Notes under the pieces: model-generated
The model's database searches: none
Seen by the model: only the letters and a program-made list of their open reading frames with translations
What the model was told of the DNA's origin: nothing
Shown: positions 4,915-60,841 of the stretch, piece by piece
How the letters are laid out: each line of letters opens with the position of its first letter
How positions within the stretch are numbered: position 1 is the stretch's first letter
NCBI GenBank assembly: GCA_030710605.1
Contig: CP092874.1
Location: 68,071,011-68,135,010 of the forward strand
Source of the DNA: Cordylochernes scorpioides
Taxonomy: Eukaryota > Arthropoda > Arachnida > Pseudoscorpiones > Chernetidae
Reading direction: 5' to 3'
DNA: 64,000 nucleotides
Translations under genes and position numbers: made by a program

Positions 4915-6675
4915 TCACATTGAGGGCAACTGTGGACACTCAACAATGTGGGTTCTAATATGTTTTCCTAAGGTGCAGGAGCTTATTGCTCTGTAATCAC
5001 AATGAGGACAAAGATGAGGTTTCTCACCAGTGTGGGTTATAATGTGCTTTTTTAAATCACCAGTGTGATTTGTCCTATAATCACAGTGAGGGCAAAGGTA
5101 GGGCTTCTCACCAGTGTGGGTTCTAATATGAGTCTTTAAGCTTTCAAGATATATTGTTCTAAAATCACAATGAGGGCAAAGGTGGGGCTTCTCACCAGTG
5201 TGGGTTCTAATATGTCTCCTTAAAGTACTAGAGATCATTGCTCTGTAATCACAATGAGGACAAAGGTAAGGTTTCTCACCAGTGTGAGTTCTAATGTGCT
5301 TTTTTAAATCACTAGGGCGATTTGTCCTAAAATAACAGTGAGGGCAAAGGTGGGGCTTCTCACCAGTGTGGATTTTAATATGTCTTCTTAAAGCACTAGA
5401 GCTAATTGCTCTGTAATCACAATGAGGACAGAGATGAGGTTTCTCACCAGTGTGGGTTCTAATGTGCTTTTCTAAATCACTAGGGCGATTTGTCCTAAAA
5501 TAACAGTGAGGGCAAAGGTGGGGCTTCTCACCAGTGTGGGTTCTAATATGTCTTCTTAAAGTACTAGAGATCATTGCTCTGTAATCACAATGAGGACAAA
5601 GGTAAGGTTTCTCACCAGTGTGAGTTCTAATGTGCTTTTTTAAATCACTAGGGCGATTTGTCCTAAATTCACAGTGAGGGCAAAGGTGAGGCTTCTCACC
5701 AGTATGGGTTCTAACATGATATCTTAAGGTGCTTGGGGTTATAGCTCTGTAATCACAATGAGGACAAAGGTAAGGTTTCTCACCAGTGTGAATTCTAATG
5801 TGACATTTTAAATCACTAGGGCGATTTGTCCTATAATCACAATGAGGACAAAGGTGAGGTTTCTCACCAGTGTGAGTTCTAATATGTGTTCTTAAAGTAC
5901 TAGAGCTTATTGCTCTATAATCACAATGAGGACAAAGGTGAGGTTTCTCACCAGTGTGAGTTCTAATATGTGTTCTTAAAGTACTAGAGCTTATTGCTCT
6001 ATAATCACAATGAGGACAAAGGTGAGGTTTCTCACCAGTGTGAGTTCTAATATGTGTTCTTAAAGTAGTAGAGCTTTTTCCTCTATACATACAATGAGGA
6101 CAAAGGTAAGGTTTCTCATCAGTGTGGGTTCTAATGTGACATTTTAAATCACTAGGGTGATTTGTCCTATAATCACAGTGAGGGCAAAGGTGAGGTCTCT
6201 CACTAGTGTGGGTTCTAATATGTCTCTTTAAGCTACCAAGTAGCATTGTTCTATGATCACAATGAGGGCATTGGTGAAGCTTCTCATCAGTATGAATTTT
6301 AATAGGTCTTTTTGAATTAGAAGTGCACTTTGTACTGTATTCACAGGGGGGGCAGAATTTGAGTGTTTCACCTGCATGTTTTCTCTGGTGTATTATTGAA
6401 CATTTCTTATTAATTGTTCGGAAATTACAGATGAAAGAGGTAAAATGTTTTTCTACTGTGTTTTTGTATGCGTTGAATAAAATGCTTGATGAATCTGGTG
6501 TGATACAGGTGAGCAGCTTTGCATTTGACTGGTTCACCATTTCTGCTACAGATGTGGCCAGATTCCTCGTCCTGCTCTCAGAGGACGTACTTGATGTATT
6601 CACTGAGAGATGCTGCACCAGACTCATCATTAGTAAGGATTTCTTTTGGGTTTTAACAAATATGATTGAAATCAT
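4915..6675 (-). CDS. tandem C2H2 zinc-finger protein, 586 aa
   Basis: A single open frame with 16 canonical C2H2 fingers plus degenerate ones at the front. Each finger is CPHC, 12 residues, HIRTH, joined by the classic TGEKP linker. Fingers come mainly in two types that alternate, TNRPSDLK and AISSSTLR, so the array grew by duplication of a two-finger unit of 168 bp. The N-terminal 75 or so residues are Ser/Thr-rich with no recognised domain. The first finger has lost a Cys (SFIC where the paralogue has CFIC) and the next has Pro for the first His. Such proteins bind DNA in the nucleus; no target can be inferred. Start is the first Met of the frame; an upstream exon could exist. The paralogue is at about 32040-34860. 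Confidence 0.85.
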   Translation of the reverse strand: MISIIFVKTQKKSLLMMSLVQHLSVNTSSTSSESRTRNLATSVAEMVNQSNAKLLTCITPDSSSILFNAYKNTVEKHFTSFICNFRTINKKCSIIHQRKHAGETLKFCPPCEYSTKCTSNSKRPIKIHTDEKLHQCPHCDHRTMLLGSLKRHIRTHTSERPHLCPHCDYRTNHPSDLKCHIRTHTDEKPYLCPHCMYRGKSSTTLRTHIRTHTGEKPHLCPHCDYRAISSSTLRTHIRTHTGEKPHLCPHCDYRAISSSTLRTHIRTHTGEKPHLCPHCDYRTNRPSDLKCHIRIHTGEKPYLCPHCDYRAITPSTLRYHVRTHTGEKPHLCPHCEFRTNRPSDLKKHIRTHTGEKPYLCPHCDYRAMISSTLRRHIRTHTGEKPHLCPHCYFRTNRPSDLEKHIRTHTGEKPHLCPHCDYRAISSSALRRHIKIHTGEKPHLCPHCYFRTNRPSDLKKHIRTHTGEKPYLCPHCDYRAMISSTLRRHIRTHTGEKPHLCPHCDFRTIYLESLKTHIRTHTGEKPYLCPHCDYRTNHTGDLKKHIITHTGEKPHLCPHCDYRAISSCTLGKHIRTHIVECPQLPSM

Positions 6676-6767
6676 GTATCATAAGGCCTGCTGTGAGTTG
6701 ATAGATATATTAAGTAGTTGCTCTTCAATACATAGTGATTGTTCATTGACTACAAACAGTAATATAT

Positions 6768-11210: not shown

Positions 11211-12395
11211 TTAACCCGCCATCACTTCCAAAAACAGAGGCCTTGCCATTCTGGAATAATACTTTTTTCCTCTTTCCTCAATCCTTCCAACAGACAAAAT
11301 ATTTCCGTCTAACTCAGGAACGTATAAAACGTTTTCCAAGAACAAGGTTTCACCTCCATATTCGTGACCGAGTTTGATTGTTACATCACCCATCTCTGAT
11401 ACTTTTATTTTCTCATTGTTAGCCATTTCTACTGAAGTTGAAATACTTTTTGTGTTCGTCAATTTCAGTCTGTTCGACGTCATATGTTCAGTAGCTCCAC
11501 TGTCCAGAAACCAGATATTCTGCGAATTATTGTTTTTAAAGTTGTTTGCAAATAGGACCTTATGAGTTAGGTCTAGCGTACTTTGTTTCAGCATACCTTC
11601 GCTAATTCTCCTTGAGGAGTTGGCAAATCTGCAATTTCTAGCTATGTGTCCTAATCTGCCACAACTGAAACATCTTATCTGCCTGGAATAATTATAATTT
11701 TCCCTTTTCCCTTCCGTCCACGTATTATGATAATTCCTTGGTTGATCATATTCAAATTTATTTCGCTCTTGACATGGTGATTTGCATGTATCTTCTTTTC
11801 TTCTTACCGCAAAAGCGCAATTAGGATCTTCTTGAGGAATTTGACGCTGTTTCTGTCTTTTTTCTTCTAAAAGTAACTTGGATTTAACCACACTAGTCGA
11901 TAGCTTCTCTTCTTGCTGTTCCAAACTGAGAATTAGCGGCTCGTAGCTCTTTGGCAATCCCAATAGCATAATCAAAGCTAATTCGCCATCCCCAAATCCA
12001 TGGTGGCACTTTGCTAATTTTCTATGACATTCCATTATTCTCGCGAAATATTCCTTCATGTCTTCGTCATTTCTTTTGACAATATTGAAAAACTCTCTTA
12101 GTAACTGTAATATGTGCAATAAGCCATACTTTGTGTGGATGTCCTCCAGTATCTGCCATGCATCGATCGCTCGCTTGCAATCACCGATATCATCCAGGAA
12201 TGAATCCTCAACTGCTAATAATATGACAGATAATGCCAAACTATCTTTCCGCTTCTGTTTTTCTGAAGCTTCACTAGGAAAGCCAGGTTCAATTGCATCC
12301 CATATATCCTTCTGGATCAAAATAGATTTAGTTCTTATAGCCCAGGAATAATAATTATTACCATCAAGTTTAGGTATTCTGAACTCGTCAGCCAT
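11211..12395 (-). CDS. Copia gag-protease, 394 aa
   Basis: Starts MADEFRIPKLDGNNYYSWAI, the typical N-terminus of Copia gag with the W-x-I capsid motif. A long gag domain (about 1-190) is followed by a CCHC knuckle CFSCGRLGHIARNC near residue 230 and an aspartic protease WFLDSGATEHM near 295. It ends GKKYYSRMARPLFLEVMAG just after the protease, where integrase would normally follow. Capsid and protease would package and process the element RNA in the cytoplasm. With the two LTRs and primer site this ORF may still be usable, but the element depends on other copies for reverse transcription and integration. Confidence 0.85.
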   Translation of the reverse strand: MADEFRIPKLDGNNYYSWAIRTKSILIQKDIWDAIEPGFPSEASEKQKRKDSLALSVILLAVEDSFLDDIGDCKRAIDAWQILEDIHTKYGLLHILQLLREFFNIVKRNDEDMKEYFARIMECHRKLAKCHHGFGDGELALIMLLGLPKSYEPLILSLEQQEEKLSTSVVKSKLLLEEKRQKQRQIPQEDPNCAFAVRRKEDTCKSPCQERNKFEYDQPRNYHNTWTEGKRENYNYSRQIRCFSCGRLGHIARNCRFANSSRRISEGMLKQSTLDLTHKVLFANNFKNNNSQNIWFLDSGATEHMTSNRLKLTNTKSISTSVEMANNEKIKVSEMGDVTIKLGHEYGGETLFLENVLYVPELDGNILSVGRIEERGKKYYSRMARPLFLEVMAG

Positions 12396-12652
12396 TGATA
12401 TTTCCAGTTATGCAAATCTGACAAAAAAATTATAACCCAAAGCTTTTCTTCTTCTTCTTCGTTGCACAAAGTTCAGTCTTTAAATCACTCAAATTTCTTA
12501 TAATCAAATTCTTTTCTCTATCTTAGTTAGCTTTATCTTCTTCAGTCTAGCATAAACTTTTCTTCTTGGCTTTCCCTTTTAGCTTTTTCTTCTTTAGCCT
12601 AAACTTCTAATTTCTCTCTACGGCGCAGTGGAAGCGTGCTGGGCCCATAACC

Positions 12653-17465: not shown

Positions 17466-18491
17466 CTACCAGACTTGCAGCGGTGGCGACAGATGTCTTC
17501 GGCTTGAGGGCTTATCTTGATTAAATTGTGATGGATACGAACTCGAAAACGGTTGACGAGCTAAACGCATTCTTTCCCATCCCTCAACTTCGTGTTTTAG
17601 GAATTCCATAAGCTTCTCCAGGAGGACTTCACTTGATTTATGCTTTCCATCTTCATCAGGCTTGTGATAATGACGAGTCCTTTCCCACGCGACGAAGAGA
17701 TCTTCAGGTAAAGCTGATTCCACCATGGGGTAAAGAATAGCAGCACATTTATCTGTTGTGACTCCTAAAGATCCCAACGCTCGTAGTTGTGACGATAACC
17801 GAACGTATACAGTCGAAAAAGATGTCGTGTTTCTTCCATAGGCATTTTCCAAAATGATAGCAATCAAATCCCTTACGTACACTTCCACCAACATGTCTTC
17901 ACGGCCAAAACGTTCCTTAAGAGTGCTGATGGCAAGTGGATAATTTGCCGCTGAGTTTGGAAAGAATGAAACTATTTCCTCCGACACTGATCCCTCTTTC
18001 ATGCAATTTTGTAGGTATTGGAACTTGACACAGGCCGAAATGGAGTCATCATCGTGGACGCTTTGAAAGGCTGACCAGAACTGCAGCCACTCCCGTGCTT
18101 CTCCTCCAAATTTCGGTAGTTCCAACTTCGGAAGTCGATGAAGATTTGACTTTCCTTCGTTCCCCCCAGAAACTATTGATTCTCGGTCTACTGTTGGTTT
18201 TGCTAGCAATTGTTCCATTTTTTGCAAAACGCCTTCAGACCTTCCAAATAGATTCGCTTGAACGATATCGACATCTTCAATTTCTTCATCTTCTCTATCC
18301 GCCTTTATCAGTTGTTCGATGAGACAATCACTGGCAATTAAGAACGTGTCTTTACATCTGAGGAGCTATGGCCGTAGAGACATCAACATTTCCTGGCATG
18401 GTTCTTGCTTTCCAAGTTCGCCATCTGCTTCTGCAATAACGCTTTCCAACGTCCTCCTTTTCGTTTCACAAGCTTTCTTGAGTTTGTCCAT
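17466..18491 (-). pseudogene. Bel-Pao gag
   Basis: The open part (17466-18227) carries the DUF1759-type gag core: LPKLELPKFGGEAREWLQFW, then CVKFQYLQNCMK and YPLAISTLKERFGREDMLV. The same frame extends upstream to an ATG at 18491, interrupted by one TAG stop near 18366. At the other end a single-base shift near 17500 throws it into PLQVW and a stop. Thus the gag has two small lesions. It would form the particle shell. Confidence 0.82.
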
Positions 18492-20725: not shown

Positions 20726-20730
20726 CCTAG

Positions 20731-20925
20731 GCATCCAGGTTTGTGTCATGGCCTCTACCTCTGTCCCGTGGGCTGTCCCCGATCACTCTCGGTGCTAACA
20801 TCTAGCCCTGTCTCTGCTTCTTGTTGTCAGCGTGTGGAAAGAACATCAACACTCGCCTCACGTAAACGACTGCCAGTTTATCCATACATCGACAGGATCA
20901 TTTGTAACAATATTACAGAAAGTCG
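20731..20925. repeat. 190-bp module, copy 1
   Basis: Starts GGCATCCAGGTTTGTGTCAT and ends near TTGTAACAATATTACA. It matches 25797-25988 over its whole length. Composition is richer in GC than the flanks. No protein is recognised in any frame. Copy 2 lies directly after the myosin-bearing LTR element. Confidence 0.75.
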
Positions 20926-23045: not shown

Positions 23046-23512
23046 TGTTGCGTGCTCTACCCCTCTTAACGCTTCCTTACTGTGGCTGACCCTTTGGACC
23101 GTTGGCCTTCCCTACACTACCACCTGGGAGCCACGCCGCACGTGAAACTCTCCTAACCTCTGGCAGTATCCGTCAGCCTTACCACGGGTGGGGGGACAGT
23201 CAGGACTGACCAGAGGCGCAGCGATATGTTGTCGGAAGGAGAGTCACGACCGCACAACGCCGAAGAACAAGGGGGTTTATTAAAACACTTTATCTACATT
23301 ATAAATGGTCGCAATATCATATAACAAGTACTTTACATAATACAGGTGGCAGGATGAGGCCGGAGGAGGAATCATGCACAGAACCATTTATTACAGGGGA
23401 TGGCGAAGGAACAGGACCAACAACAGAGTCAGAGCAGAGAAACGCCGCATAAATCCATGGCGCTACCTATTGGCCACTTTTAGAACTATTTTCTAACGCC
23501 ATGCATGCCACA
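23046..23512 (-). repeat. 3' LTR of the myosin-bearing element
   Basis: TGTTGCGTGC to GCATGCCACA on the plus strand. Matches 25211-25650 almost base for base (for example GTGGCAGGATGAGGCCGGAG in both), then ends in about 25 unrelated bases. High identity implies recent activity. Confidence 0.88.
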
Positions 23513-23760
23513 CTGCCCCCCAATCAAACCTGATCGTCCCGATCAGGTCCACTCTGATTGCTCTCCCTGGAAGAGTGCCAACCGGCTCAAATCGGCGACC
23601 CTTGGTTTTGCTTTCGAACTTCGCTGGATGCGGTAGACCAAGTCGTTGATTCTCCTGACGACCTTTGCATCATCATTCAACTATTTCTTTTTCTTCCGGA
23701 TCCTTGAGGTATGGGGCACTTAACTAAAATCGTCTCCAACGATTTCCCGCCCAAAAACCA

Positions 23761-25146
23761 TCAGTTGTCCATCTTCTTTTTCCAAATAAATCTGAGGTAG
23801 TCCCAATCATTGCTCTTAATGGCCATTAACCGGAAGTATCTTCTCAGGTCGGCCAAAACTCCGTACTTATTTTTCCGAAGCTCTATCCCTATCTCAGAAA
23901 TTCTCTTCAGTAGATTGGGTATCTCCCTTAAATATCGTCTCAAGGAGAGTCCGCTGTGTCTTCGACTGGAAGCGTCGTCAAATACTGGCCGTATAGGCGT
24001 AGCCCCGGACTCACACCCAAATACAGGGCGATCAGGCAACCAGTATCCCTTTCCTGCATCTAGCTTTTCTTCTTCCTTTGGATCAGTACCCTGTTCTGCA
24101 TCTAGCTTTTCTTCCACCTTTAAATCAGTACACCGTTCTACATCTAGCTTTCCTTCCACCCTTGACTCTGTACAATGTACTTCATCTATATTTTTCGCTT
24201 CATTTGCATCATGATCTTTTCCCTTGTAATGTTCTGACTGCCTGTGTCCATCCTCCAGCTGCATGGACATCTCCTTGACCTTCTTGTCCAGCTTCCTGTT
24301 AGCCTTGGCGAGAGCTTGTCTCTCCTTGCCCTCCGCCTCCAGCTGTTCCTCCAGCTGGCAGGTCTTGCTCTCTAGGCTGGCAATGGTGGCCTTGGTATGG
24401 GCTCTCTGAGAGGTCTCCCGCTCTTGCAGCTTGGCCCGCAGCTCCTTGCCCTGTCTCTCCAGCAGGGACCCGGCGTTCTCCAGCTTCTGGCAGGAGGCTC
24501 TCTCTGCTGCCACCTCTGTGGTGAGCAGGTCCACGGAGCTCTGGGCGCGATGGGCCTTCTCCGCCAGCCCCTCCGCCTTGGCCTGTTCCTCCTCCATCTC
24601 CTCCTCCAGCTGGTGGATCCGGGTCTCCAGCCTGCGCTTGTCATCCTGGAGCATGGTCACACGACTAGCCTTGCTGTTGGCCTCTTCTGCCAGGTCGTCT
24701 CTCTCTGCCTCTGCGCTGCGTCTCGCACGCTCTGCTGTGCTCAGTTCCTCCTGCAGGGCAATCACCTCGGACTCCAGGCTCTTGATCCTCTTGTCCACAT
24801 CCTTGTGCTGGCCCTGTGCTTCCACCCTTATCCCCGACAGCATTTTGGCCCATTTCTCCTCTTTTTCCTCTCTTCGCTTCAGCTTCTCTTCCTTTTCTTG
24901 TTCTCGTCTCCGCTCTTCCTCCTCCTTTTCACGCTTCAGCTTATCCTCTTTTTCTTCTCTTCGCTTCAGCTTCTCTTCCTTTTCTTGTTCTCGTCTCCGT
25001 TCTTCCTCCTCCCTTTCTTGCTCTCTTTCTTGCCTCATAAGGCCCATGAACTGCTTCAAAAGTTCTTCTGAGGCCATTTTCTGTCCTCTGGTCTCCACAG
25101 GCATACAAACAAGGTGGCAACTATCTGGTTCCTTCCAGAGCCTCAA
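23761..25146 (-). CDS. gag-like / non-muscle myosin II tail fusion, 461 aa
   Basis: Residues 15-45 (MPVETRGQKMASEELLKQF) look like a Gypsy gag start. Residues 36-100 are a charged repeat (REEEERRREQEKEEKLK unit, twice). Residues about 123-308 read as myosin heavy-chain rod: ALQEELSTAERARRSAEAER, KRRLETRIHQLEEEMEEEQA, ERASCQKLENAGSLLERQGK and MSMQLEDGHRQSEHYKG follow the order and heptad pattern of the cytoplasmic myosin II tail. Residues 316-365 hold three degenerate KLD repeats. Residues about 405-455 (GVLADLRRYFRLMAIKSNDW, DYLRFIWKKK) resemble reverse transcriptase motif A. The myosin block is intron-free and much richer in GC than the rest. Function is unknown; a coiled-coil protein is expected. 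Start could be residue 1 or Met15. Confidence 0.8.
   Translation of the reverse strand: MRLWKEPDSCHLVCMPVETRGQKMASEELLKQFMGLMRQEREQEREEEERRREQEKEEKLKRREEKEDKLKREKEEEERRREQEKEEKLKRREEKEEKWAKMLSGIRVEAQGQHKDVDKRIKSLESEVIALQEELSTAERARRSAEAERDDLAEEANSKASRVTMLQDDKRRLETRIHQLEEEMEEEQAKAEGLAEKAHRAQSSVDLLTTEVAAERASCQKLENAGSLLERQGKELRAKLQERETSQRAHTKATIASLESKTCQLEEQLEAEGKERQALAKANRKLDKKVKEMSMQLEDGHRQSEHYKGKDHDANEAKNIDEVHCTESRVEGKLDVERCTDLKVEEKLDAEQGTDPKEEEKLDAGKGYWLPDRPVFGCESGATPIRPVFDDASSRRHSGLSLRRYLREIPNLLKRISEIGIELRKNKYGVLADLRRYFRLMAIKSNDWDYLRFIWKKKMDN
24223..24780 (-). other. captured myosin II heavy-chain tail segment
   Basis: About 186 residues aligned by eye with the coiled-coil rod of non-muscle myosin II (zipper/MYH9-10 type). 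The match is collinear, with no motor domain and no intron. Composition shifts abruptly: this block is GC-rich with many CTG, GAG and GCC codons, whereas the flanking parts of the same ORF are AT-richer. That fits a piece of spliced host mRNA joined to the retroelement RNA. Boundaries are approximate. Confidence 0.78.
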
Positions 25147-25187
25147 CCCCGACTCTCCACCAGATACTGCCGGTTAGTCCACTAATA

Positions 25188-25210
25188 AGGATCCCACTTC
25201 TGACACCAAG
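25188..25210 (-). promoter_or_regulatory. tRNA-Leu-type primer binding site
   Basis: The plus strand reads ATCCCACTTCTGACACCA, the 3' end expected of a Leu tRNA; on the minus strand this is the primer site directly after the 5' LTR. The Gypsy at 60698 has the same core TGGTGTCAGAAGT. Confidence 0.75.
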
Positions 25211-25746
25211 TGTTGCGTGCTCTACCCCTCTTAACGCTTCCTTACTGTGGCTGACCCTTTGGACCGTTGGCCTTCCCTACACTACCACCTGGGAGCCACG
25301 CCGCACGTGAAACTCTCCTAACCTCTGGCAGTATCCGTCAGCCTTACCACGGGTGGGGGGACAGTCAGGACTGACCAGAGGCGCAGCGATGTGTTGTCGG
25401 AAGGAGAGTCACGACCGCACAACGCCGAAGAACAAGGGGGTTTATTAAAACACTTTATCTACATTATAAATGGTCGCAATATCATATAACAAGTACTTTA
25501 CATAATACAGGTGGCAGGATGAGGCCGGAGGAGGAATCATGCACAGAACCATTTATTACAGGGGATGGCGAAGGAACAGGACCAACAACAGAGTCAGAGC
25601 AGAGAAACGCCGCATAAATCTATGGCGCCACCTATTGGCCACTTTTAGAAGGGGAGGAAATAGCTGACGCCCCTCAAGGGCTTTTTATAGATAACCCCTG
25701 TCAACAGGACAGTTTTAGCAGGAAGAGATCGAAGAATTTATCTACA
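25211..25746 (-). repeat. 5' LTR of the myosin-bearing element
   Basis: 25211-25650 matches the 3' LTR. 25651-25746 is extra U3-like sequence; on the minus strand it begins TGTAGATAAATTC and contains CTATAAAAAGCC, a plausible TATA box. The outer end is set by TG/CA rule only and is uncertain. Confidence 0.7.
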
Positions 25747-25796
25747 GTGGGTCCATTGGCAGACCGCTTCGGTTTCTCTCTCCATGTCTCGGTGAT

Positions 25797-25990
25797 AGGC
25801 ATCCAGGTTTGTGTCATGGCCTCTACCTCTGTCCCGTGGGCTGTCTCCGATCACTCTCGGTGCTATAATCTAGAGCCCTGCCTCTGCTTCTTGTTGTCCA
25901 CGTGTGGGAAGAACATCCACACTCGCCTCACGTACATGACTGCCAGTTTATCCATATTGACAGAATCATTTGCAACAATATTACATATAT
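25797..25990. repeat. 190-bp module, copy 2
   Basis: Nearly identical to 20731-20925. Sits 50 bp beyond the 5' LTR of the myosin-bearing element. Unclassified. Confidence 0.75.
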
Positions 25991-32429: not shown

Positions 32430-32792
32430 TTAGGGCTTCTCACCAGTGTGGATTTTATGTTTTCTTAAAGTACTAGAGCTTATTGCTCTGTAATCACAAT
32501 GAGAACAAAGGTAAGGTTTCTCACCAGTGTGGGTTCTAATATGTTTTTTTAAGGTGCTTGGGGTAATAGCTCTGTAATCACAATTAGGACAAAGGTGGGG
32601 CTTCTCACCAGTATGGGTTCTAATATGATATCTTAAGGCACTTGAGCCCTTTGCTCTGTAATCACAATGAGGACAAAGGTGAGGTTTCTCACCAGTATGG
32701 GTACTAATATGATATCTTAAGGCACTTGAGCTTATTGCTCTGTAATCACAGTGAGGGCAAATGTGAGGTTTCGCACCAGTGTGTGTCCACAT
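32430..32792 (-). pseudogene. detached zinc-finger block
   Basis: Four and a half fingers in frame (RAISSSALRYH, RAKGSSALRYH, RAITPSTLKKH, RAISSSTLRKH), almost the same as the end of the 33492-34820 ORF, so this is an internal duplication of the array tail. It is bounded on the right by an inverted copy. Confidence 0.7.
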
Positions 32793-33043
32793 TGTGATTA
32801 CAGAGCAAAGGGCTCAAGTGCCTTAAGATATCATATTAGAACCCATACTGGTGAGAAGCCCCACCTTTGTCCTAATTGTGATTACAGAGCTATAACCCCA
32901 AGCACCTTAAAAAAACATATTAGAACCCACACTGGTGAGAAACCTTACCTTTGTTCTCAATATACATTCTTTTCTGTATAATATAAATATAAAAACGTTT
33001 TTAGTTACATTATATATGTTAGATTTAGATTTTGGGGTGTGAA
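32784..33043 (+). repeat. inverted finger block joined to piggyBac scrap
   Basis: 32784-32961 reads plus-strand fingers (CPHCDYRAKGSSALRYH, CPNCDYRAITPSTLKKH) and is the reverse complement of about 32500-32675. It runs straight into 32961-33043, which is the reverse complement of 27762-27843 (ATATTTATATTATACAG side), an internal piece of the piggyBac without its terminal repeat. Minus-strand fingers resume at once after it. Confidence 0.8.
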
Positions 33044-33491
33044 TTGTCCTATAATCACAGTGAGGGCAAAGGTGAGGTCTCTCACCAGTGTGGGTTCTAA
33101 TATGTTTTCTTAAAGTACCAGAGCATATTGTTCTATAATCACAATAAGGACAAAGGTGAGGTCTCTCACCAGTGTGGGTTCTAATATGTTTTCTTAAAGT
33201 ACCAGAGCATATTGTTCTATAATCACAATAAGGACAAAGGTAAGGTTTCTCATCAGTGTGGGTTTTAATGTGACATTTTAAATCACTAGTGTGATTTGTC
33301 CTATAATCACAGTGAGGGCAAAGGTGAGGTGTCTCACTAGTGTGGGTTATAATATGATATCTTAAGGCACTTGAGCTTATTGCTCTGTAATCACAATGAG
33401 GACAAAGGTAGGGCTTCTCACCAGTGTGGGTTCTAATATGAGTCTTTAAGCTGTCAAGATGTATTGTTCTAAAATCACAGTGAGGGCAAAG

Positions 33492-34820
33492 TTAGGGCTT
33501 CTCACCAGTGTGGATTTTATCATGTTTTCTTAAAGTACTAGAGCTTATTGCTCTGTAATCACAATGAGAACAAAGGTAAGGTTTCTCACCAGTGTGGGTT
33601 CTAATATGTTTTTTTAAGGCACTTGAGCTTATTGCTCTGTAATCACAATTAGGACAAAGGTGGGGCTTCTCACCAGTATGGGTTCTAATATGATATCTTA
33701 AGGCACTTGAGCCCTTTGCTCTGTAATCACAATGAGGACAAAGGTGAGGTTTCTCACCAGTATGGGTATTAATATGATATCTTAAGGCACTTGAGCTTAT
33801 TGCTCTGTAATCACAGTGAGGGCAAATGTGAGGTTTCTCACCAGTGTGAGTTCTAATGTGACATTTTAAATCACTAGTGTGAATTGTCCTATAATCACAG
33901 TGAGGGCAAATGTGAGGTTTCTCACCAGTGTGAGTTCTAATGTGACATTTTAAACCACCAGTGTGATTTGTCCTATAATCACAGTGAGGGCAAAGGTGAG
34001 GTCTCTCACCAGTGTGAGTTCTAATATGTCTTCTTAAAGTACTAGAGCTTATTGCTCTATAATCACAATGAGGACAAAGGTAAGGTTTCTCATCAGTGTG
34101 GGTTCTAATGTGTTTTTTTAAATCACTAGGGTGATTTGTCCTATAATCACAGTGAGGGCAAAGGTAGGGCTTCTCACCAGTGTGGGTTCTAATATGAGTC
34201 TTTAAGCTTTCAAGATATATTGTTCTAAAATCACAATGAGGGCAAAGGTGGGGCTTCTCACCAGTGTGGGTTCTAATATGTCTTCTTAAAGTACTAGAGC
34301 TTATTGCTCTATAATCACAATGAGGACAAAGGTGAGGTTTCTCACCAGTGTGAGTTCTAATATGTGTTCTTAAAGTAGTAGAGCTTATTGCTCTATAATC
34401 ACAATGAGGACAAAGGTGAGGCTTCTCACCAGTGTGAGTTCTAATGTGAAATTTTAAATCACCAGGGTGATTTGTCCTATAATCACAGTGAGGACAAAGG
34501 TGAGGTCTCTCACTAGTGTGGGTTCTAATATGTCTCTTTAAGCTACCAAGTTGCATTGTTCTATGATCACAATGAGGGCATTGGTGAAGCTTCTCATCAG
34601 TGTGAATTTTAATAGGACTTTTTAAATTAGAAGTGCACTTTGTACTATATTCACAGAGAGGGCAGAATTTGAGTTTTTCACCTGCATGTTTTCTCTGGTG
34701 TATTATTGAATATTTCTTATATATTGTTCGGAAATCACAGATGAAACAGGTAAAATGTTTTTCTACTGTGTTTTTGTGTGTGTTGAATAAAATGTCCTTG
34801 ATGAATCTGGTGTCATACAA
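33492..34820 (-). CDS. C2H2 zinc-finger ORF, 442 aa
   Basis: About 13 canonical fingers (CPHC, 12 residues, HIRTH, TGEKP) after an intact first finger CFICDFRTIYKKYSIIHQRKH and one with a missing His. Alternating TNHPSDLK and AISSSTLR types as in the paralogue, but order and number differ, so fingers have been gained and lost since duplication. The ORF ends at GEKP followed by a stop, a point change within a linker. An alternative start or upstream exon could keep it expressed, but the loss of the N-terminal frame argues for decay. Confidence 0.65.
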   Translation of the reverse strand: MYDTRFIKDILFNTHKNTVEKHFTCFICDFRTIYKKYSIIHQRKHAGEKLKFCPLCEYSTKCTSNLKSPIKIHTDEKLHQCPHCDHRTMQLGSLKRHIRTHTSERPHLCPHCDYRTNHPGDLKFHIRTHTGEKPHLCPHCDYRAISSTTLRTHIRTHTGEKPHLCPHCDYRAISSSTLRRHIRTHTGEKPHLCPHCDFRTIYLESLKTHIRTHTGEKPYLCPHCDYRTNHPSDLKKHIRTHTDEKPYLCPHCDYRAISSSTLRRHIRTHTGERPHLCPHCDYRTNHTGGLKCHIRTHTGEKPHICPHCDYRTIHTSDLKCHIRTHTGEKPHICPHCDYRAISSSALRYHINTHTGEKPHLCPHCDYRAKGSSALRYHIRTHTGEKPHLCPNCDYRAISSSALKKHIRTHTGEKPYLCSHCDYRAISSSTLRKHDKIHTGEKP

Positions 34821-35243
34821 GTAGGAATCTTTGCATTTGACTGGTTCACCATTTCTGCTACAGATGTGGCCAGATTCCTCTTACTGCTCTCAGAGGAGTA
34901 CTTGTATTCACTGAGAGATGCTGCACCAGACTCATCATTAGTAAATATTTATTTTGGGTTGTAATAAAAATGATTGAAATCATGTATCATAAGGCCTGTT
35001 GTGAGTTGGCAGATATATTGAGTAGTTGCTCTTCAATAGATAGTGATTTTTCATTGACTACAAACAGTAATATATTAAGTTGAATAAAATATTGTGGTAA
35101 AGAAATAATTTATTATTTAATTTAATTACTCAATGGAAATATTTGGAAACAGATTTATTATTTTATCATCATTTAGTTGCCTAGCTTGCTTGCTTGATAG
35201 TTGTAGATAGCTTAGTTAATTTATTAATATTTGTCAACTGGTC

Positions 35244-39960: not shown

Positions 39961-42369
39961 CAGTCGAACCTCTTTAATTCAACACCCCAAGGGATCAGAG
40001 CTTTTGGTTGAATTAAAGGAAGTGTTGAATTAAGATTAGATGATTAGATAATCATCTAACTAGCTAAAATAATATATATATATTTTTATAAATCGCTTTG
40101 TAATATAAATAAATGATATTAATTGAAACCATTGGGTGTGTACTTTTTTATATTTATTTTTTTATTTTCATGATTAACTTTTAGTATCTGGGACAAAATG
40201 GCAATAATACATATTTTCGAAACAAATAATATTTTATTCCAATTGTGTGTGAATAATAGTTTAAAGAAAATAAATATGGAAAATAAAAAGAAAATAAAAA
40301 AATATTATTTGAAAAGAATCAAGATTAAAAAAAAAAATATTTTATAGATGTCTGTTTTTTCTCTGAAATCCTATTCAGGATGTATTCCAGATAGTCTATT
40401 TTTAAAAGACATGCATGCCTTTCTTCTTCAGAAATGTCTTTTAAATAACAAAGAGTTTTTTATTGTATTAAAGGCATCCACTGCTACTGCAGGTGTTATT
40501 GATGTTTTGTTTAAATCTTTTTCTGTTGGCTCTACCTCTTATCTTCTTCTTTTCCCATTACCTCCATTACAATTTCTTCAATGGACTGTTTCCCAGCAAC
40601 TTGCACATCTTTATCAACTTCCAAGAAGTCAATATAGTTGACATCAATGGCTTGATGTTTTTTTAAAGCCTCAAAAAATCTGTTCATTTCTTCTTCAACA
40701 ACTTCTTCCATTGCTTCATCCATCACAAATCCTGAATGAGAAAAACAATTTTTTATTGTGGAAGAACTAACCCCAACCCATGCAGCCTCTAGCCAGCTAA
40801 TTGCAAAGAGTAAATGTACTTGAGCATTTTTTTTTCTTCCATGCAAGTGAGAAGATACGTTATCATTCGTTTCCATTATTGGTCTTTTAGGGCTTTAATG
40901 ATACCCATATCACAGGGTTGTAATGCACTTGTAGTTAGGGCGGGCAAAAATCTTATTTCAATGTTCTGTAACCCTTCAGGTATTTGGTGGGCTGGGCAAT
41001 TATCTAAAATTAATAAAATTTTTCTTTCTCCTCTTTTGAATATTTGGTCCAATTTTTTCAGCCAATCCGTAAAAATTGCCCCAGTCATCCAGGCTTTTTT
41101 ATTAAAATGATAATTTGAGGGAATATTCATGCCATGGAAGCATCGTGGTCTTCTATATTTCCCAATATAAAGTAAAGGCAGTTTTTCACTTCCATCCATA
41201 TTACAGCATACCAACACTGTAATTCTCTCTTTAGACTTCTTACCCCCTTCACATTTCTCACCTCTGATAGTCATTGTTTGATTAGGCAAAAGTTTATAAA
41301 ATAACCCTGTTTCATCAGCATTGAAAATGTCCTGTGGGCTGTATTTAGCTAAAAGTGAAGGAATAATCCCACCTTTCCAAGTGGCTACACTATTGGCATC
41401 CACACTTCCAGCTTCTCCATGAAGTCATTTAAAAGCAATATTCCTTCTGGCCTTAAACTTTTCTAGCCAGCCATTGCTAGCTTCAAAATTATCTTGACCC
41501 ATTTTCAAGGCCAAGAGTATAGCCTTTTCTTTCAAGATATTGCCATTTATGGCAAGTTTCATGGCATTTGCCTGCCTTATCCACCTAAACAGGGCTTCTT
41601 CAATCTCTGGGAATTCCCCGTCACGATCACGTTTCAAGGTAGAGCTAAAATTAGATTTTAAAAAGGCAGATTTTATGGTGAATTTATTTTTTAAAATTGT
41701 GCTAATGGTGGACCGTGGAATATTTCTCTCTCTGGAAACTTGACTATGTGATTTTCCTTGTTCTATTTCTTCTATAAGTGAGCTGGTGATACTGACTACG
41801 TTTCCAATTTTTTTTGGCAGAACCTGACATTCTTGCCCTACTCATTTATTCAAATTAACACAGAATATTGAATTAAAATGTTATCATAATCATTGTTGGA
41901 TCATTTTATAAATATTTATTTATTTAAAAATAAATTATTTATAAATTTAAAATAGCTAAAATATTTCAATGTTAAAAATAAAAAAATAAAAATTATTATT
42001 AGTTAGCGCATGATGCCGAAATTCCCGCGTAAAAAAAACAACAATGACATCCGTGAAATTGCGCAACGGCACTGCAAAGTGAAACTTAAACTAACCAGAA
42101 ACCAAAAGTGCGCAGGCGCGATCCTATCGGCGCCCGCCGATTCCGATAGTCGCCGCTGTAATACCGTTTAGCGGTAAAGTTGCATGTAAAATAACATTCA
42201 ACTGTCGAAATTCAAATTTTAAAATGGTCGAACTATCGGAACTGTCGTATTATCGATACTGTCGAATTACGGTTTGTTATTTGATAGGCGGGAGGTCGGG
42301 ACATCGGAACATGGTCGAATTATCGCCGAGTGTCGAATTGGGGTGTGTCGAATTAACGAGGTTATACTG
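39961..42369 (-). mobile_element. Tigger/pogo-like element A, near complete
   Basis: Ends CAGTCGAACCTCTTTAATTC and CGAATTAACGAGGTTATACTG are imperfect inverted repeats of about 25 bp, flanked by TA (39959-39960, 42370-42371). The 2.4-kb length and a single transposase gene on the minus strand are normal for Tigger. Other copies of the family: 27067-29343 (deleted) and 42778-43016 (end only). Confidence 0.9.
40532..41850 (-). pseudogene. Tigger transposase (CENP-B HTH and DDE)
   Basis: In order: a pogo-type HTH with IEEALFRWIRQANAMK and NFEASNGWLEKFKARRNIAF (CENP-B-type DNA-binding, 41425-41637). Then the DDE domain (40876-41403): first Asp in IFNADETGLFYKLLP, second in ILLILDNCPAH, third in LQPCDMGIIKALK. 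An in-frame TGA near 41425 separates the two. A frameshift near 40870 throws the C-terminus (40532-40876: ISWLEAAWVGVSSSTIKNCF) into another frame. The protein would bind its ends and cut and paste the element in the nucleus. This copy is inactive as it stands. Confidence 0.88.
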
Positions 42370-54334: not shown

Positions 54335-54769
54335 ATGGCTGACCAACCAGTTAGTAGTGCTGAACTGAAAAAGCTTAGGACGCCAGTTCGTGCAAGGTTC
54401 ACCAAGGCGTTCAATGAGCTCGAAACAGAGATCAAGAAGAATGAAGTCAATAAAGCAGATGTAGAGAAAATCCTCCGCCGATTCCAGACCCACCATGAAA
54501 AGCTTTCAATATTGAACATGAGGATGGAAGAAGCTCTGCTACAAGAAGCAGCGTCTGAAGACATTTTCACTGCTGAGTACGAATCCGTTTGTGAGTACGA
54601 AGATAATTTCAGTAACTTTATGACTGATTACGAGGCTCTTGCGGAAAAGAATGACGTTACAGAAATCCCTCGTTATCACGAACTCGGATTATATGAACTC
54701 TCGGTTTGCGCGAACCGTTTCTTTTCCCCCTTAAATTTCAATGCTCTCCAAAGAGATTTTGCCAGTTAA
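54335..54769 (+). pseudogene. Bel-Pao-like gag N-terminus, 144 aa
   Basis: MADQPVSSAELKKLRTPVRA then RFTKAFNELETEIKK and a coiled-coil-like middle (VEKILRRFQTHHEKLSIL) match the start of Bel-Pao gag proteins, before the DUF1759 core. The frame then runs into unrelated residues (ELSVCANRFFSPLNF) and a stop, so the element is cut off soon after the gag start. Upstream lies a likely primer site. No pol follows. Confidence 0.6.
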
Positions 54770-55431: not shown

Positions 55432-58062
55432 TTAGCTTGTCTCAGCCCTTGTTCTGGAAGGAAATCTATCACGGCCTGTGTTCCCTAGCAGAATGGAATG
55501 TTGTTCTTCAGGGTCCAGGTAGGGCTTCATCCGAATGACATGAATGATATCCTTGGATTTCCGTGATCGGGGAGACGGGTCCACGGGCTCTACTTCATAC
55601 GTAACTTCTGAAAGCTTCTTGGTCACCTTGTAGGGACCGAAGTATCTCTTCAGTAGCTTTTCTGAGAGCCCTACTTTTCGGATGGGAGTAAAAACCCACA
55701 CAAGATCATCCTTCTGGTAATAGACTGGAGTATGTTTCTGGTCGTAAAGTCTACGGTCTTTCGCCTGTGATTGTAGAAGGCGTGATCGGGAGAGTTGACG
55801 CGCTTCCTCAGCTCTGGTCACAAGTTCCCCAACGTAGTCGTCAGAGATCTCATCTGGTAGGTAGGGTAGTACGGCATCGATGTAGGTCTCGGCCTCGCGG
55901 GCGTGGACAAGAAAGAACGGAGTGTAGCCGGTCGCCTCCTGTTTAGCAGTGTTGTAAGCAAAAGTCACGTAGGGTAAAACTTGGTCCCAGTCCTTCTGCT
56001 CGACACCTGTGTACATGGACAACATGTCTCCCAGAGTTTTGTTGAACCTTTCAGTCAGGCCGTTGGTCTGGGGATGGTAGGCCGTTGTAAATCTGTGCAC
56101 AATTCCGCACAGAGCATTGATCTCTTTCATTACTTGAGAAATGAAATTTCTTCCGCGATCTGTTATCATTTCTCTAGGAGCTCCATGCTTCAAGATAACA
56201 TCTTCAACCAGGAACTTAGCTGTTTCGATTGCTCCTCCGTCTGGGATCGCTTTCGTTATGGCATACCTTGTCATATAATCGGTGCACACAATGATCCAAC
56301 GGTTTCCATCTTTAGAAACTGGAAATCTTCCAAGGAGATCGACCCCGACCTTATAGAATGGCTTTTCTACGGGCAGTATGGATACAAGTTGTCCAGCCGG
56401 ACGTCGAGGTAATTTCTTCCTTCGTTGACACTCCCAACAAAGGCTTACATATTGGCGAACAGTTCTATAAAGGCCAGGCCAATAGAATCGTTTCTTGACT
56501 TTGTCATACGTTCGGGCGAAACCCAAATGCCCAGCTGTAGGAGCGTCATGTAAATCTGCCATAACTTCCGATCTTAAGTGCTTAGGGATCATCATAAGCC
56601 AGGGTCTTCCAGTTGTGCTATAGTTTTTCTTGTATAAGATGCCGTCGATAATGCTGAATTCCTTTCTGGTGTAGCCCGAGTTTAAATTATCGATTATTTT
56701 AGCTAAATCCGGGTCTTTAGTCTGCTCTATATCGACGTTGGTTAGTGATATCACAGCACTTGGTGGATCGTTCTCAAGCGGGCTCCTTGACAGACAATCG
56801 GCATCCTTATGTTTGCGTCCGCTCTTGTAGATAACGGTCACGTCAAATTCTTGCAACTTCAGCGCCCATCTTGCCAAACGGCCAGAAGGATCTTTCTGCC
56901 CTACCAACCAACATAGAGAATGATGGTCAGTGACAACCGTGAATGGTCGACCAAACAAATATGGGCGGAATTTGCTAATAGACCAGACTACAGCAAGGCA
57001 TTCTTTTTCCGTTGTAGAATAGTTATTTTCAGCCTTTGTCAAGCTTCTAGATGCATAAGCTATAGGCCGCTCCTTTTCACCTTGTATTTGTAGAAGAACA
57101 GCTCCAATACCATGTCCGCTTGCATCCTTGTGTAGATGGGTATCAGCGGATTCATCAAAGTGTCCTAAGACAGGCTCTGAAATTAGAGTGGTTTTAAGGA
57201 CTTCAAACGCTTTCTCTTGAGCTGCATCCCAATAAAATTGTTTTTCAGTCTTCAGTAGGTCATGCAAAGATCTAGCTTTGTCGGCAAAGTTCTCAATAAA
57301 TCTTCGGTAATAGGAACATAATCCAAGAAAGCTCCTCAGTTCAGAGATATTCCTTGGCCTCGGAAATTTAGAGACGGCTTCAACTTTATCTGGATCTGGA
57401 TGAATTCCATTGGCGTCAACAAGGTGTCCCAAAATCTTAATCCTCCTTGATCCAAAAAGACACTTTTTGTGGTTCAAGCTTAGTCCAGCTTTCTGGATGC
57501 AGCTTAATACAAGTTGTAGACGACGTAGATGTTCCTCAAAGGTAGGTGCGTAAACTACGATGTCGTCCAGGTAGCAAAGGCACATGTTCCATTTAAGACT
57601 GCCCAGAACACTATCTATCATCCTTTCAAACGTTACTGGAGCGTTACAAAGACCGAAAGGCATTACTTGGAATTCATACAACCCATCTGGAGTGATGAAA
57701 GCAGTTTTCTCCCTGTCTTTTTCGTCCACTTCAATCTGCCAATACCCGGACCGAAGATCCATCGTGGAGAAGTAACTAGAGCCGGCTAAACTATCCAAGG
57801 CATCGTCAATACGTGGAAGCGGGTAAACATCTTTTTTTGTTATCTTATTTAATCGACGGTAATCTACGCAGAATCTCCAGGTCCCGTCTTTCTTTCGAAC
57901 TAGAATAACTGGAGATGACCAAGGACTTTCAGAGGGCTTCACGATGTGATTTTCAATCATCTTGTTCACTTCATCTTGAATTAGTCGTCGTTCACTTGGT
58001 GCTACTCTATAGGGCCTCTGTTTGATAGGAGAGTGGTCTCCTGTGTTTATCTTGTGCTTCAC
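55432..58062 (-). CDS. Gypsy pol (RT, RNase H, integrase), 876 aa
   Basis: One open frame. RT (about 1-240): WRFCVDYRRLNKITKKDVYP, MDLRSGYWQIEVDEKDREKT and catalytic CYLDDIVVYA (residues 164-167). RNase H (about 300-420): KDASGHGIGAVLLQ, with Lys before the first Asp where Thr is usual, and TEKECLAVVW. Integrase: zinc finger DAPTAGHLGF ... CWECQRRK (about 510-555), catalytic Asp in VGVDLLGRF, Asp in MITDRGRNF and Glu in NGLTERFNKT, then FGPYKVTKKLSEVTYEV, the GPY/F module. Coding text goes on upstream of the first Met to 58252, so this ORF start is not the natural one; it is fused to protease in the intact family. Confidence 0.93.
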   Translation of the reverse strand: MKHKINTGDHSPIKQRPYRVAPSERRLIQDEVNKMIENHIVKPSESPWSSPVILVRKKDGTWRFCVDYRRLNKITKKDVYPLPRIDDALDSLAGSSYFSTMDLRSGYWQIEVDEKDREKTAFITPDGLYEFQVMPFGLCNAPVTFERMIDSVLGSLKWNMCLCYLDDIVVYAPTFEEHLRRLQLVLSCIQKAGLSLNHKKCLFGSRRIKILGHLVDANGIHPDPDKVEAVSKFPRPRNISELRSFLGLCSYYRRFIENFADKARSLHDLLKTEKQFYWDAAQEKAFEVLKTTLISEPVLGHFDESADTHLHKDASGHGIGAVLLQIQGEKERPIAYASRSLTKAENNYSTTEKECLAVVWSISKFRPYLFGRPFTVVTDHHSLCWLVGQKDPSGRLARWALKLQEFDVTVIYKSGRKHKDADCLSRSPLENDPPSAVISLTNVDIEQTKDPDLAKIIDNLNSGYTRKEFSIIDGILYKKNYSTTGRPWLMMIPKHLRSEVMADLHDAPTAGHLGFARTYDKVKKRFYWPGLYRTVRQYVSLCWECQRRKKLPRRPAGQLVSILPVEKPFYKVGVDLLGRFPVSKDGNRWIIVCTDYMTRYAITKAIPDGGAIETAKFLVEDVILKHGAPREMITDRGRNFISQVMKEINALCGIVHRFTTAYHPQTNGLTERFNKTLGDMLSMYTGVEQKDWDQVLPYVTFAYNTAKQEATGYTPFFLVHAREAETYIDAVLPYLPDEISDDYVGELVTRAEEARQLSRSRLLQSQAKDRRLYDQKHTPVYYQKDDLVWVFTPIRKVGLSEKLLKRYFGPYKVTKKLSEVTYEVEPVDPSPRSRKSKDIIHVIRMKPYLDPEEQHSILLGNTGRDRFPSRTRAETS

Positions 58063-58252
58063 AGTACTGGTGGGCTTAATAGGTGTACTCCCAAAGTCAA
58101 ATACGTCGATAAACTCGTCAAGGCATGAAACAAGCTGTAACCTTTGAATTTCAGACAGCCCTGGATCTAGAGTAAGGTTTATCTTCTGTGACCATTCACG
58201 TGACTTTAGCTGCGTTTCTTGTAACTTATCGCTGGATTCAATAAGACTGCAG

Positions 58253-58383
58253 ATATTCCCATTCTAAATAGTTATAAAACGAAGAGAATTTTTTTTATTA
58301 AAATGCATGGGCTACATTCGTTTTATAACTATTTACAATTCTATAAGATAAATTTTCATGATTCATGTTAATATTCCCATTCT
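58253..58383. repeat. 105-bp insert with 13-bp target duplication
   Basis: ATATTCCCATTCT stands at both sides (58253-58265, 58371-58383). The insert 58266-58370 starts with AAATAGTTATAAAACGAA, whose exact complement occurs at 58317-58334. It breaks the protease-pol frame: removing 118 bp would bring the two ORFs into one phase. Its class is unknown. Confidence 0.85.
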
Positions 58384-58993
58384 CATAACTTTCCATGGTG
58401 CACATATTCATTCCTGATGGAATCAGTTGCGGCCAAGACGCTCCATTCGCCACCCAAATGCTACCTCGGCCGTGTCGAAATGTAACCAATGAGTTTGGTA
58501 TAAGAACTTCCTTTCTTAATAATAAGTCCTTAGAAGTTGAGACTAAAACATCTCTAACACCACATATTTCTTCGTTTATCACACTGATCTTCTTTATTGA
58601 TTTAGGCGGGATGACAAAGTCTTCGGAGGCAAACAATCTCTGGTTTTCCTCCTCTCGAGATTCCAGGACGGAGGTTTCCCCGAGATGGAGTTCATTTCTG
58701 CCACAATCAATGACGGCCTCGGTGGCCTTGAAGAAGTCCCATCCAAATATGATATCATGGCTGCATTCCACCATAACAACGAATTCAAATGAGATATTCA
58801 GACCATTAACTTCTATGTTCAGGACACATTTTCCTAGGGTCTCTATTAAATTTTTGTTTGCGGCTTTAAGAATGGGACCTGGTTCTTTGAAGAGAGGTGT
58901 CTTTAGTTCGCGTCGAAATTTGTCTGAAATAACAGAAAAGTCGGCTCCTGAATCCACCAATGCTTTAATTTTGCGTCCGTTTATTTCGACCAT
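58298..58993 (-). CDS. Gypsy protease, 231 aa
   Basis: Retropepsin-type aspartic protease. VDSGADFSVISDKFRREL near residue 15 carries the D-S-G catalytic triad; VVMVECSHDIIFGWDFFKAT near 75 is the hydrophobic-G strand that closes the active site (I-F-G). The residues after ESYENGN come from the 105-bp insert and are not part of the protease. It cleaves gag and pol in the particle. Its frame differs from gag, so a frameshift is used or has occurred around 59000-59080. Confidence 0.85.
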   Translation of the reverse strand: MVEINGRKIKALVDSGADFSVISDKFRRELKTPLFKEPGPILKAANKNLIETLGKCVLNIEVNGLNISFEFVVMVECSHDIIFGWDFFKATEAVIDCGRNELHLGETSVLESREEENQRLFASEDFVIPPKSIKKISVINEEICGVRDVLVSTSKDLLLRKEVLIPNSLVTFRHGRGSIWVANGASWPQLIPSGMNMCTMESYENGNINMNHENLSYRIVNSYKTNVAHAF

Positions 58994-59079
58994 AACAAAA
59001 TTTTCTTTTAATTTAGCGGCGATATACCCTGGAGGATTTTCCTCAATGGCGACCTCACCCCCGTTAGAAGCCGCTCCAC

Positions 59080-60330: not shown

Positions 60331-60697
60331 AATGCCACGTGAAAATTAGGGAGGACAAAAACTTCAGGAGGAAACAAAATTTATTTCAGGGAAGGACAAA
60401 CTATCAAAGGTAAACAAAAGATAAGCCACGAGGGAAATTTACAGAGTCGCAAGATATAAAACATAAAAATGACCACTCTGTTAAATAAAAAATAATAAAA
60501 TTAAGAAATACTATGTGTAATATAGTTAATATCGTACTTGGCAACACAGTTGAGTTCGATATAGAATGTAAACAAAAGAACTAACGCTATCTAATACTAA
60601 CGACAATCCTGTAAGTAAATAAATATATCTAATACCCCAATATAAATAAATCTTATAATACGTTTGCTAATTATATTACGTAAACAAAGATTTTACA
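60331..60697 (+). repeat. probable 5' LTR region of the next Gypsy
   Basis: The stretch ends ATTTTACA immediately before a primer site. No second copy is present within the window, so length and left edge are open. It contains the AATAAATATATC and AATAAATCTT poly(A)-type signals expected of an LTR. Confidence 0.45.
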
Positions 60698-60712: not shown

Positions 60713-60841
60713 AATTTTAAAATAAATAAAAGTAGCGTATTTCGCTAACCCTAGTTCTAAACTGAAAGGCTTAACAAAAGTTCCAAACTTAAAAATAAGC
60801 GGAAATAAATAGCTTTGAGAATAATATTTAAATAACTAACC

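What the first reader, a model, noticed from the sequence alone, without database searches (positions are those of the whole stretch)
23761..25146. LTR retroelement with a captured non-muscle myosin II tail
Between two highly similar LTRs, after a tRNA-Leu-type primer site, the only ORF joins a gag-like N-terminus to about 186 residues that read collinearly as cytoplasmic myosin II rod, then to an RT-like scrap; a Gypsy integrase tail remains before the polypurine tract. The myosin block has no introns and a sharply higher GC content. This is the layout expected if a Gypsy element transduced a spliced host mRNA, as acute retroviruses did with host genes. Seen: ORF, LTRs, primer site, composition. 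Known: heptad pattern and family signature of myosin tails. Inferred: the capture event.
Basis: partly seen in the sequence, partly recalled or inferred. Interest (0 to 1): 0.88.

Follow-up and report, generated by a model that had tools for sequence, protein, structure and literature searches.

The report
Jumping element carrying stolen myosin tail
A small virus-like jumping element, most likely from a pseudoscorpion genome, carries in place of its own capsid part a stretch copied from an arachnid cell-motor (myosin) gene, and its relatives show forms with and without the stolen piece.

Summary
The finding holds. On the minus strand lies a 2.6 kb LTR element: LTRs alike over 440 bp with 3 mismatches, primer site and polypurine tract in place, one 438-codon ORF. 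Its middle 199 codons (24819-24223) are collinear, uninterrupted non-muscle myosin II (NMII) rod that groups with chelicerate NMIIs. Of 17 related proteins found, all Cordylochernes scorpioides, 6 carry the myosin. Myosin-less relatives give breakpoints: P0011 is identical at 57 of 57 aligned residues up to ...MLSGIRVE, then continues into its own gag; a second element type reads ...SDYAE|NKDDKYNK|GKDHD without...SDYAE|325 residues|GKDHD with myosin. The second type holds the longer piece, so capture there, then transfer to the Gypsy-type element and spread, is most likely. Corrections: the 'RT scrap' is not confirmed as RT; the 5' LTR lacks 27 outer bp; the Gypsy-type element probably got the myosin second-hand. 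The block ends just before the NMII assembly domain, so a coiled coil that pairs but does not build filaments is predicted. Host gene, introns, expression and selection could not be tested.

The parts
25211..25650 (-). 5' LTR, lacking about 27 bp at its outer end
   Evidence: 440 bp, 3 mismatches to the 3' LTR; tip absent
25189..25208 (-). primer-binding-site-like stretch, 2 nt inside the 5' LTR
   Evidence: sequence read; tRNA-Leu assignment is recalled
24820..25077 (-). gag N-terminus (charged repeats), ATG at 25077-25075
   Evidence: 57 of 57 aligned residues identical to the PNMA-type gag protein P0011
24223..24819 (-). captured non-muscle myosin II rod, 199 codons
24004..24222 (-). acidic repeats, native to the second element type (GKDHD...)
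23761..24003 (-).
   Evidence: shared by C. scorpioides proteins; for the failed RT tests
23546..23680 (-). remnant of a Gypsy integrase C-terminus
   Evidence: PF22938, 27.0 bits at cut-off 27
23513..23525 (-). polypurine-tract-like G-rich stretch
23046..23512 (-). 3' LTR, 467 bp, TG...CA

Best explanation
A non-autonomous, Gypsy-type LTR retrotransposon in which the gag capsid part and nearly all of pol have been replaced by a piece of the host lineage's NMII rod plus a C-terminal module from a second element type. Likely course: (1) in the second element type, reverse transcriptase switched onto a co-packaged myosin mRNA and back, leaving about 325 residues of rod (two pieces, with an internal loss) in the acidic region (copies with and without: shown as proteins; mechanism: inferred). 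(2) The last 199 of these residues, with the module behind them, were joined in frame to the gag N-terminus of a Gypsy-type element, by template switching or recombination (shared 3' junction and nested 5' end: shown; mechanism: inferred). (3) The chimera kept LTRs, primer site and polypurine tract and spread, using the pol of intact relatives in trans (several copies: shown; trans-mobilisation: inferred). The protein should be a gag-coiled-coil fusion that can pair but not build myosin filaments, because the block stops just before the assembly competence domain (inferred).
For: Myosin identity and controls. Arachnid origin: captured rows inside a fork with the chelicerate NMIIs, support 97/93. 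Breakpoints: P0011 57 of 57 and P0004 62 of 81 aligned residues identical upstream, then own gag instead of myosin; P0002, P0017, P0018 share the window's junction; P0012 87 of 107 and P0015 51 of 93 upstream of the empty site in the second type. Nested insert: P0016 325 residues, window 199. Copies: 6 of 17 related C. scorpioides proteins carry the myosin tail, on five contigs by the contig lengths; P0002 and P0005 share a rearranged block, 145 of 148 residues. LTR pair 0.7% apart. GC3 contrast. Assembly domain 1875-1903 in MHC-IIB (passages of PMC2204051) against block end at 1869.
Against: No DNA of any other copy, so LTRs, introns and exact DNA junctions of the relatives are unseen; several relatives are merged gene models. 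The myosin-less second-type copies could in principle be deletion products rather than the before-state. The host's own NMII was not found. The block is 58-60% identical to three spider NMIIs, less than insects are to them (65-71%), so the source was fast-evolving or the block changed after capture. Core (a/d) positions are not more conserved than others against the spider protein (0.54 of 56 against 0.61 of 140), and four copies (P0002, P0005, P0017, P0018) have a proline in the block, which speaks against strong selection for the coiled coil.
Confidence: 0.72

Rival explanations
1. Direct capture: the Gypsy-type element itself took a spliced myosin mRNA, and the second element type got the block from it.
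For: Gypsy-type copies with intact PNMA-type gag (P0004, P0011) break exactly where the window turns into myosin.
Against: The second type has 126 further residues of rod upstream of the window's block, which a Gypsy-type donor with the shared junction does not have, and the sequence behind the block (GKDHD...) is that of myosin-less second-type copies P0012 and P0015.
Confidence: 0.12
2. DNA route: a processed myosin pseudogene or a piece of genomic myosin DNA was joined to an element by DNA repair, without template switching.
For: Pieces missing inside the longer block (about 141 residues) and the divergence of the block would fit a pseudogene.
Against: Both junctions keep the frame in the window, and the 199 codons have no stop and no proline.
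Confidence: 0.14
3. Two unrelated LTR insertions on either side of a myosin pseudogene.
For: The 5' LTR lacks its outer 27 bp and no target-site duplication can be read.
Against: LTRs 440 bp with 3 mismatches, primer site and polypurine tract at the right ends, and the same gag-myosin unit in P0002, P0017 and P0018.
Confidence: 0.01

Closest known systems
Bs1 retroelement of maize (passages of PMC13317346)
   Same: Host gene segments carried within an LTR element, fused into a hybrid reading frame
   Different: Plant element with pieces of three host genes (per the passage); here one cytoskeletal gene in an arachnid, present in two element types with myosin-less copies of each
LTR-mediated retroposition in metazoans (Tan et al. 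2016, not held; known here only as cited in PMC8232201)
   Same: RNA copy of a host gene flanked by LTRs in animals
   Different: Here the copy sits in frame inside a gag-like ORF and the chimera is found in several copies
Burro giant Gypsy-like elements of planarians (PMC6431247 section 7)
   Same: Animal Gypsy-like elements with extra host-like domains in the gag-containing polyprotein
   Different: Burro is over 30 kb with pol and many extra domains; this element is 2.6 kb, without pol, with one captured rod
Acute transforming retroviruses (recalled, no call)
   Same: Host coding sequence fused to gag, replication in trans
   Different: No env seen, no sign of infection or transformation

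Membership tests
Gypsy-type LTR retrotransposon, non-autonomous | paired LTRs, TG...CA | tested here: met
   440 bp, 3 mismatches; 3' LTR TG...CA; 5' LTR lacks 27 outer bp
Gypsy-type LTR retrotransposon, non-autonomous | primer-binding site and polypurine tract next to the LTRs | tested here: met
   position and letters; tRNA identity not tested
Gypsy-type LTR retrotransposon, non-autonomous | Gypsy gag/pol remains or relatives | tested here: met
   integrase tail at the cut-off; gag N-terminus identical to PNMA-type P0011; P0004 PNMA 4.9e-07, RVT_1 8.5e-06 below its cut-off
Autonomous Gypsy element | gag capsid, protease, RT, RNase H, integrase | tested here: not met
   one ORF without these domains
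Gypsy-type LTR retrotransposon, non-autonomous | target-site duplication | tested here: inconclusive
   outer end of the 5' LTR missing
Retroelement with transduced host gene | host coding segment inside the LTRs, fused to element ORF | tested here: met
Retroelement with transduced host gene | same element without the host segment | tested here: met
   protein level only: P0004, P0011, P0012, P0015
Retroelement with transduced host gene | spliced (intron-less) relative to the parent gene | not testable with these tools
   window block uninterrupted; parent gene not reached (genome search did not complete)
Retroelement with transduced host gene | host segment moves with the element | tested here: met
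   6 further predicted proteins with the block, on five contigs; their LTRs unseen
BEL/Pao origin of the second element type | BEL-type gag and RT | tested here: inconclusive
   N-terminus 24% over 66 aa to a window ORF at 54365-54562 that has no Pfam match; module behind DUF5641 in P0014; no RT by Pfam; resemblance to BEL recalled
Functional non-muscle myosin II gene | motor domain and full rod | tested here: not met
   199 residues of rod only

The most novel reading that the evidence does not exclude
The myosin rod is not a mere passenger: it is kept because it gives a capsid-less element a ready-made pairing domain that does not build filaments, and non-autonomous elements in this genome trade such host-derived domains between element types by template switching.
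Probability: 0.2. Interest if true: 0.85.

Novelty: new variant of a known kind. Interest (0 to 1): 0.62.

Why it matters
Capture of host genes by LTR elements is known from plants and retroviruses and has been reported in animals. Here forms with and without the captured piece, their breakpoints, a move to a second element type and later spread can all be read from one arachnid genome. That makes the route of capture (mRNA and template switching, or DNA repair) directly testable on a public assembly, and gives a case of a gag whose capsid part has been replaced by a cytoskeletal coiled coil.

Tried and rejected
Two insertions around a pseudogene, and chance coiled-coil similarity: rejected. 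RT nature of the C-terminal module: Pfam at E up to 10 found none; profile comparison with window Gypsy RTs and P0004 gave E 0.038, probability 1.4 (six shuffles: E 0.066 to 0.55), not significant; the fold model is poor (mean pLDDT 52.5, helices only), so no fold search was run. Labels that looked like more captured host genes: P0015 'MAP4K1' has no kinase domain; P0012 'MDM4' has a RING domain behind the module that may be a merged gene model; left open. Rfam: no match in the window at gathering score. Literature, 10 searches, judged from titles and starts of abstracts: the listed papers for C. scorpioides (15 of 17), pseudoscorpion with retrotransposon (3) and chelicerate with retrotransposon and captured host gene (2) do not announce this element; retrotransposon with myosin heavy chain and four more terms gave no paper. 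This covers those searches and that library only.

Full report
What is there. On the minus strand of 23046-25650 lies one LTR element. The LTRs agree over 440 bp with 3 mismatches and no gap. The 3' LTR (23046-23512) is TG...CA; the 5' LTR (25211-25650) lacks the outer 27 bp, and what follows is unrelated; part of it (25796-25985) is a repeat also found from 20728 on. So no target-site duplication can be read. A primer-site-like stretch follows the 5' LTR by 2 nt and a G-rich tract abuts the 3' LTR; that the primer is tRNA-Leu is recalled. The one long ORF on this strand is open from 25173 and has its likely start at 25077, 438 aa.

The ORF has four segments of different composition: gag N-terminus (25077-24820, GC3 0.52), myosin (24819-24223, GC3 0.80), acidic repeats (24222-24004, GC3 0.29), C-terminal module with stop (24003-23761, GC3 0.52). 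Beyond the stop, 23680-23546 reads as the C-terminus of a Gypsy integrase (PF22938, 27.0 bits at a cut-off of 27); a stretch overlapping it is read in another frame in P0004 (31 residues, 90%).

The myosin block is real. Pfam Myosin_tail_1 2.2e-48; 186 of 186 residues collinear with Myosin-10 1684-1869. It matches 114 of 114 NMIIs over 191 or more of 199 residues; gag N-terminus alone, C-terminal part alone and 20 shuffles of the block match none. The 114 had been found by myosin similarity, so the number shows collinearity, not discovery. The block has no proline; the best heptad phase is the same as in the spider protein P0021, with similar hydrophobic core content (0.54 and 0.52), but core positions are not better conserved than the rest (identity 0.54 of 56 against 0.61 of 140).

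Origin of the block. In a tree of 39 rows (36 myosins chosen from 117, and 3 captured rows) the captured rows lie within a 13-row fork, support 97/93, with all 6 named chelicerates and 4 unnamed rows; their stem is long (0.56 changes per site) and their own branches are 0.003 to 0.014. Identity to three spiders is 58-60%, below that of the horseshoe crab (68-69%) or of the insects and centipede in the same table (65-71%). So the source is probably arachnid, but was fast-evolving or changed after capture; a long branch leaves its exact place unsure.

Relatives. Searches with the whole ORF (10 hits), its C-terminal part (12 hits) and the longer myosin region (644 hits, 120 listed) gave 17 proteins named as C. 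scorpioides (P0002-P0018): 10 of 10, 12 of 12 and 3 of the 120 listed. Searches scored only the candidates sharing most words. Of the 17, 6 carry Myosin_tail_1 (P0002, P0003, P0005; P0016, P0017, P0018); P0009-P0011 were judged by the precomputed column, the rest. By the contig lengths the six lie on five contigs. That the window is C. scorpioides is inferred from these matches. Several of the proteins are gene models that run into neighbours (Tc5/CENP-B-type domains in P0016, DDE_3 in P0002, cullin in P0018), so they show the coding part of the elements, not their ends.

With and without. Gypsy type: P0011 (PNMA by the precomputed column) is identical to the window at 57 of 57 aligned residues, with one 29-residue gap in the charged repeats, up to MLSGIRVE, and then continues as its own gag; P0004 (PNMA) does the same with 62 of 81. 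P0002, P0017 and P0018 share the window's junction (48 of 52, 50 of 55, 45 of 54 residues across it). Second type: P0012, without myosin, matches P0016 at 87 of 107 residues up to SDYAE, then has NKDDKYNK, then GKDHD; P0016 has 325 residues of myosin there. P0015 is a second myosin-less copy (51 of 93 upstream; NKDDKCNK). Downstream the two match P0016 at 89 of 132 and 91 of 152. P0016's insert holds two pieces of rod, roughly 1412-1453 and 1595-1875 of P0021, so about 141 residues are missing between them; its 5' limit is unsure. The Gypsy-type copies hold only the last 199 residues, and behind them the second type's own sequence. Capture in the second type first, transfer to the Gypsy type second, is therefore the simplest order. 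That the myosin-less second-type copies are the before-state, not deletions, is inferred; for the Gypsy type the intact gag makes it firm.

Spread. P0002 and P0005 share a rearranged block with tandem duplication (145 of 148 residues); P0017 and P0018 show the same first rearrangement by eye. The window copy and the second-type copies do not have it. These four rearranged copies also have a proline in the block. The window block differs from P0016's at 7 of 199 residues.

How it probably works. Shown: anatomy, copies and junctions (as DNA in the window, as predicted proteins elsewhere). Inferred: template switching onto a co-packaged mRNA, mobilisation in trans, and the protein's behaviour. 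In MHC-IIB the assembly competence domain is 1875-1903, and a rod lacking the last 116 residues is virtually unable to assemble (passages of PMC2204051). The block ends at the residue matching 1869, so the fusion should pair but not form filaments. Whether this was selected or is chance is open; the prolines and the core-position result do not favour strong selection.

Limits. The genome search was unanswered 10 times, so no DNA of other copies or of the host gene was seen: introns, LTRs of the relatives, dN/dS and copy number are open. The C-terminal module is shared by 11 of the 12 proteins by my alignment or motif cut (14 rows with the window, P0002 not among them), and to my eye recalls a BEL-type RT start, but Pfam and profile comparison did not confirm RT.

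Known context. Host gene pieces in LTR elements are known from plants (passages of PMC13317346), LTR-mediated retroposition in animals is cited in PMC8232201 (passages), and planarian Burro elements carry host-like domains (PMC6431247, section 7). This is a new variant of that kind.

Noticed in passing
25651-25795, 25796-25985 and 20728-20917: Outside the 5' LTR lies a GC-richer stretch with a TATA-box-like run (25651-25795, by eye), then a repeat also present near 20728 (94% over the best 103 bp); it may be part of another element into which the 5' end fell.
   Followed up: partly
P0012 (C. scorpioides protein, not in the window): A second-type protein is followed by an MDM-labelled RING domain (PF13920); possibly another captured or merged host gene.
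   Followed up: partly
P0018 (C. scorpioides protein, not in the window): The gag-myosin chimera is annotated as one protein with a cullin C-terminus: either a merged gene model or an insertion that became part of a cullin-like gene.
   Followed up: no
4915-6678 and 32430-34880, minus strand: Two long arrays of C2H2 zinc-finger repeats (by eye, one search list) among transposons.
   Followed up: no
55435-60345 minus, 60836-62935 plus, 11214-12407 minus, 17469-18365 minus, 40879-41424 minus: Other transposon genes with Pfam matches: Gypsy-type pol and gag, a further RT, copia-type gag, DUF1759, DDE_1.
   Followed up: partly
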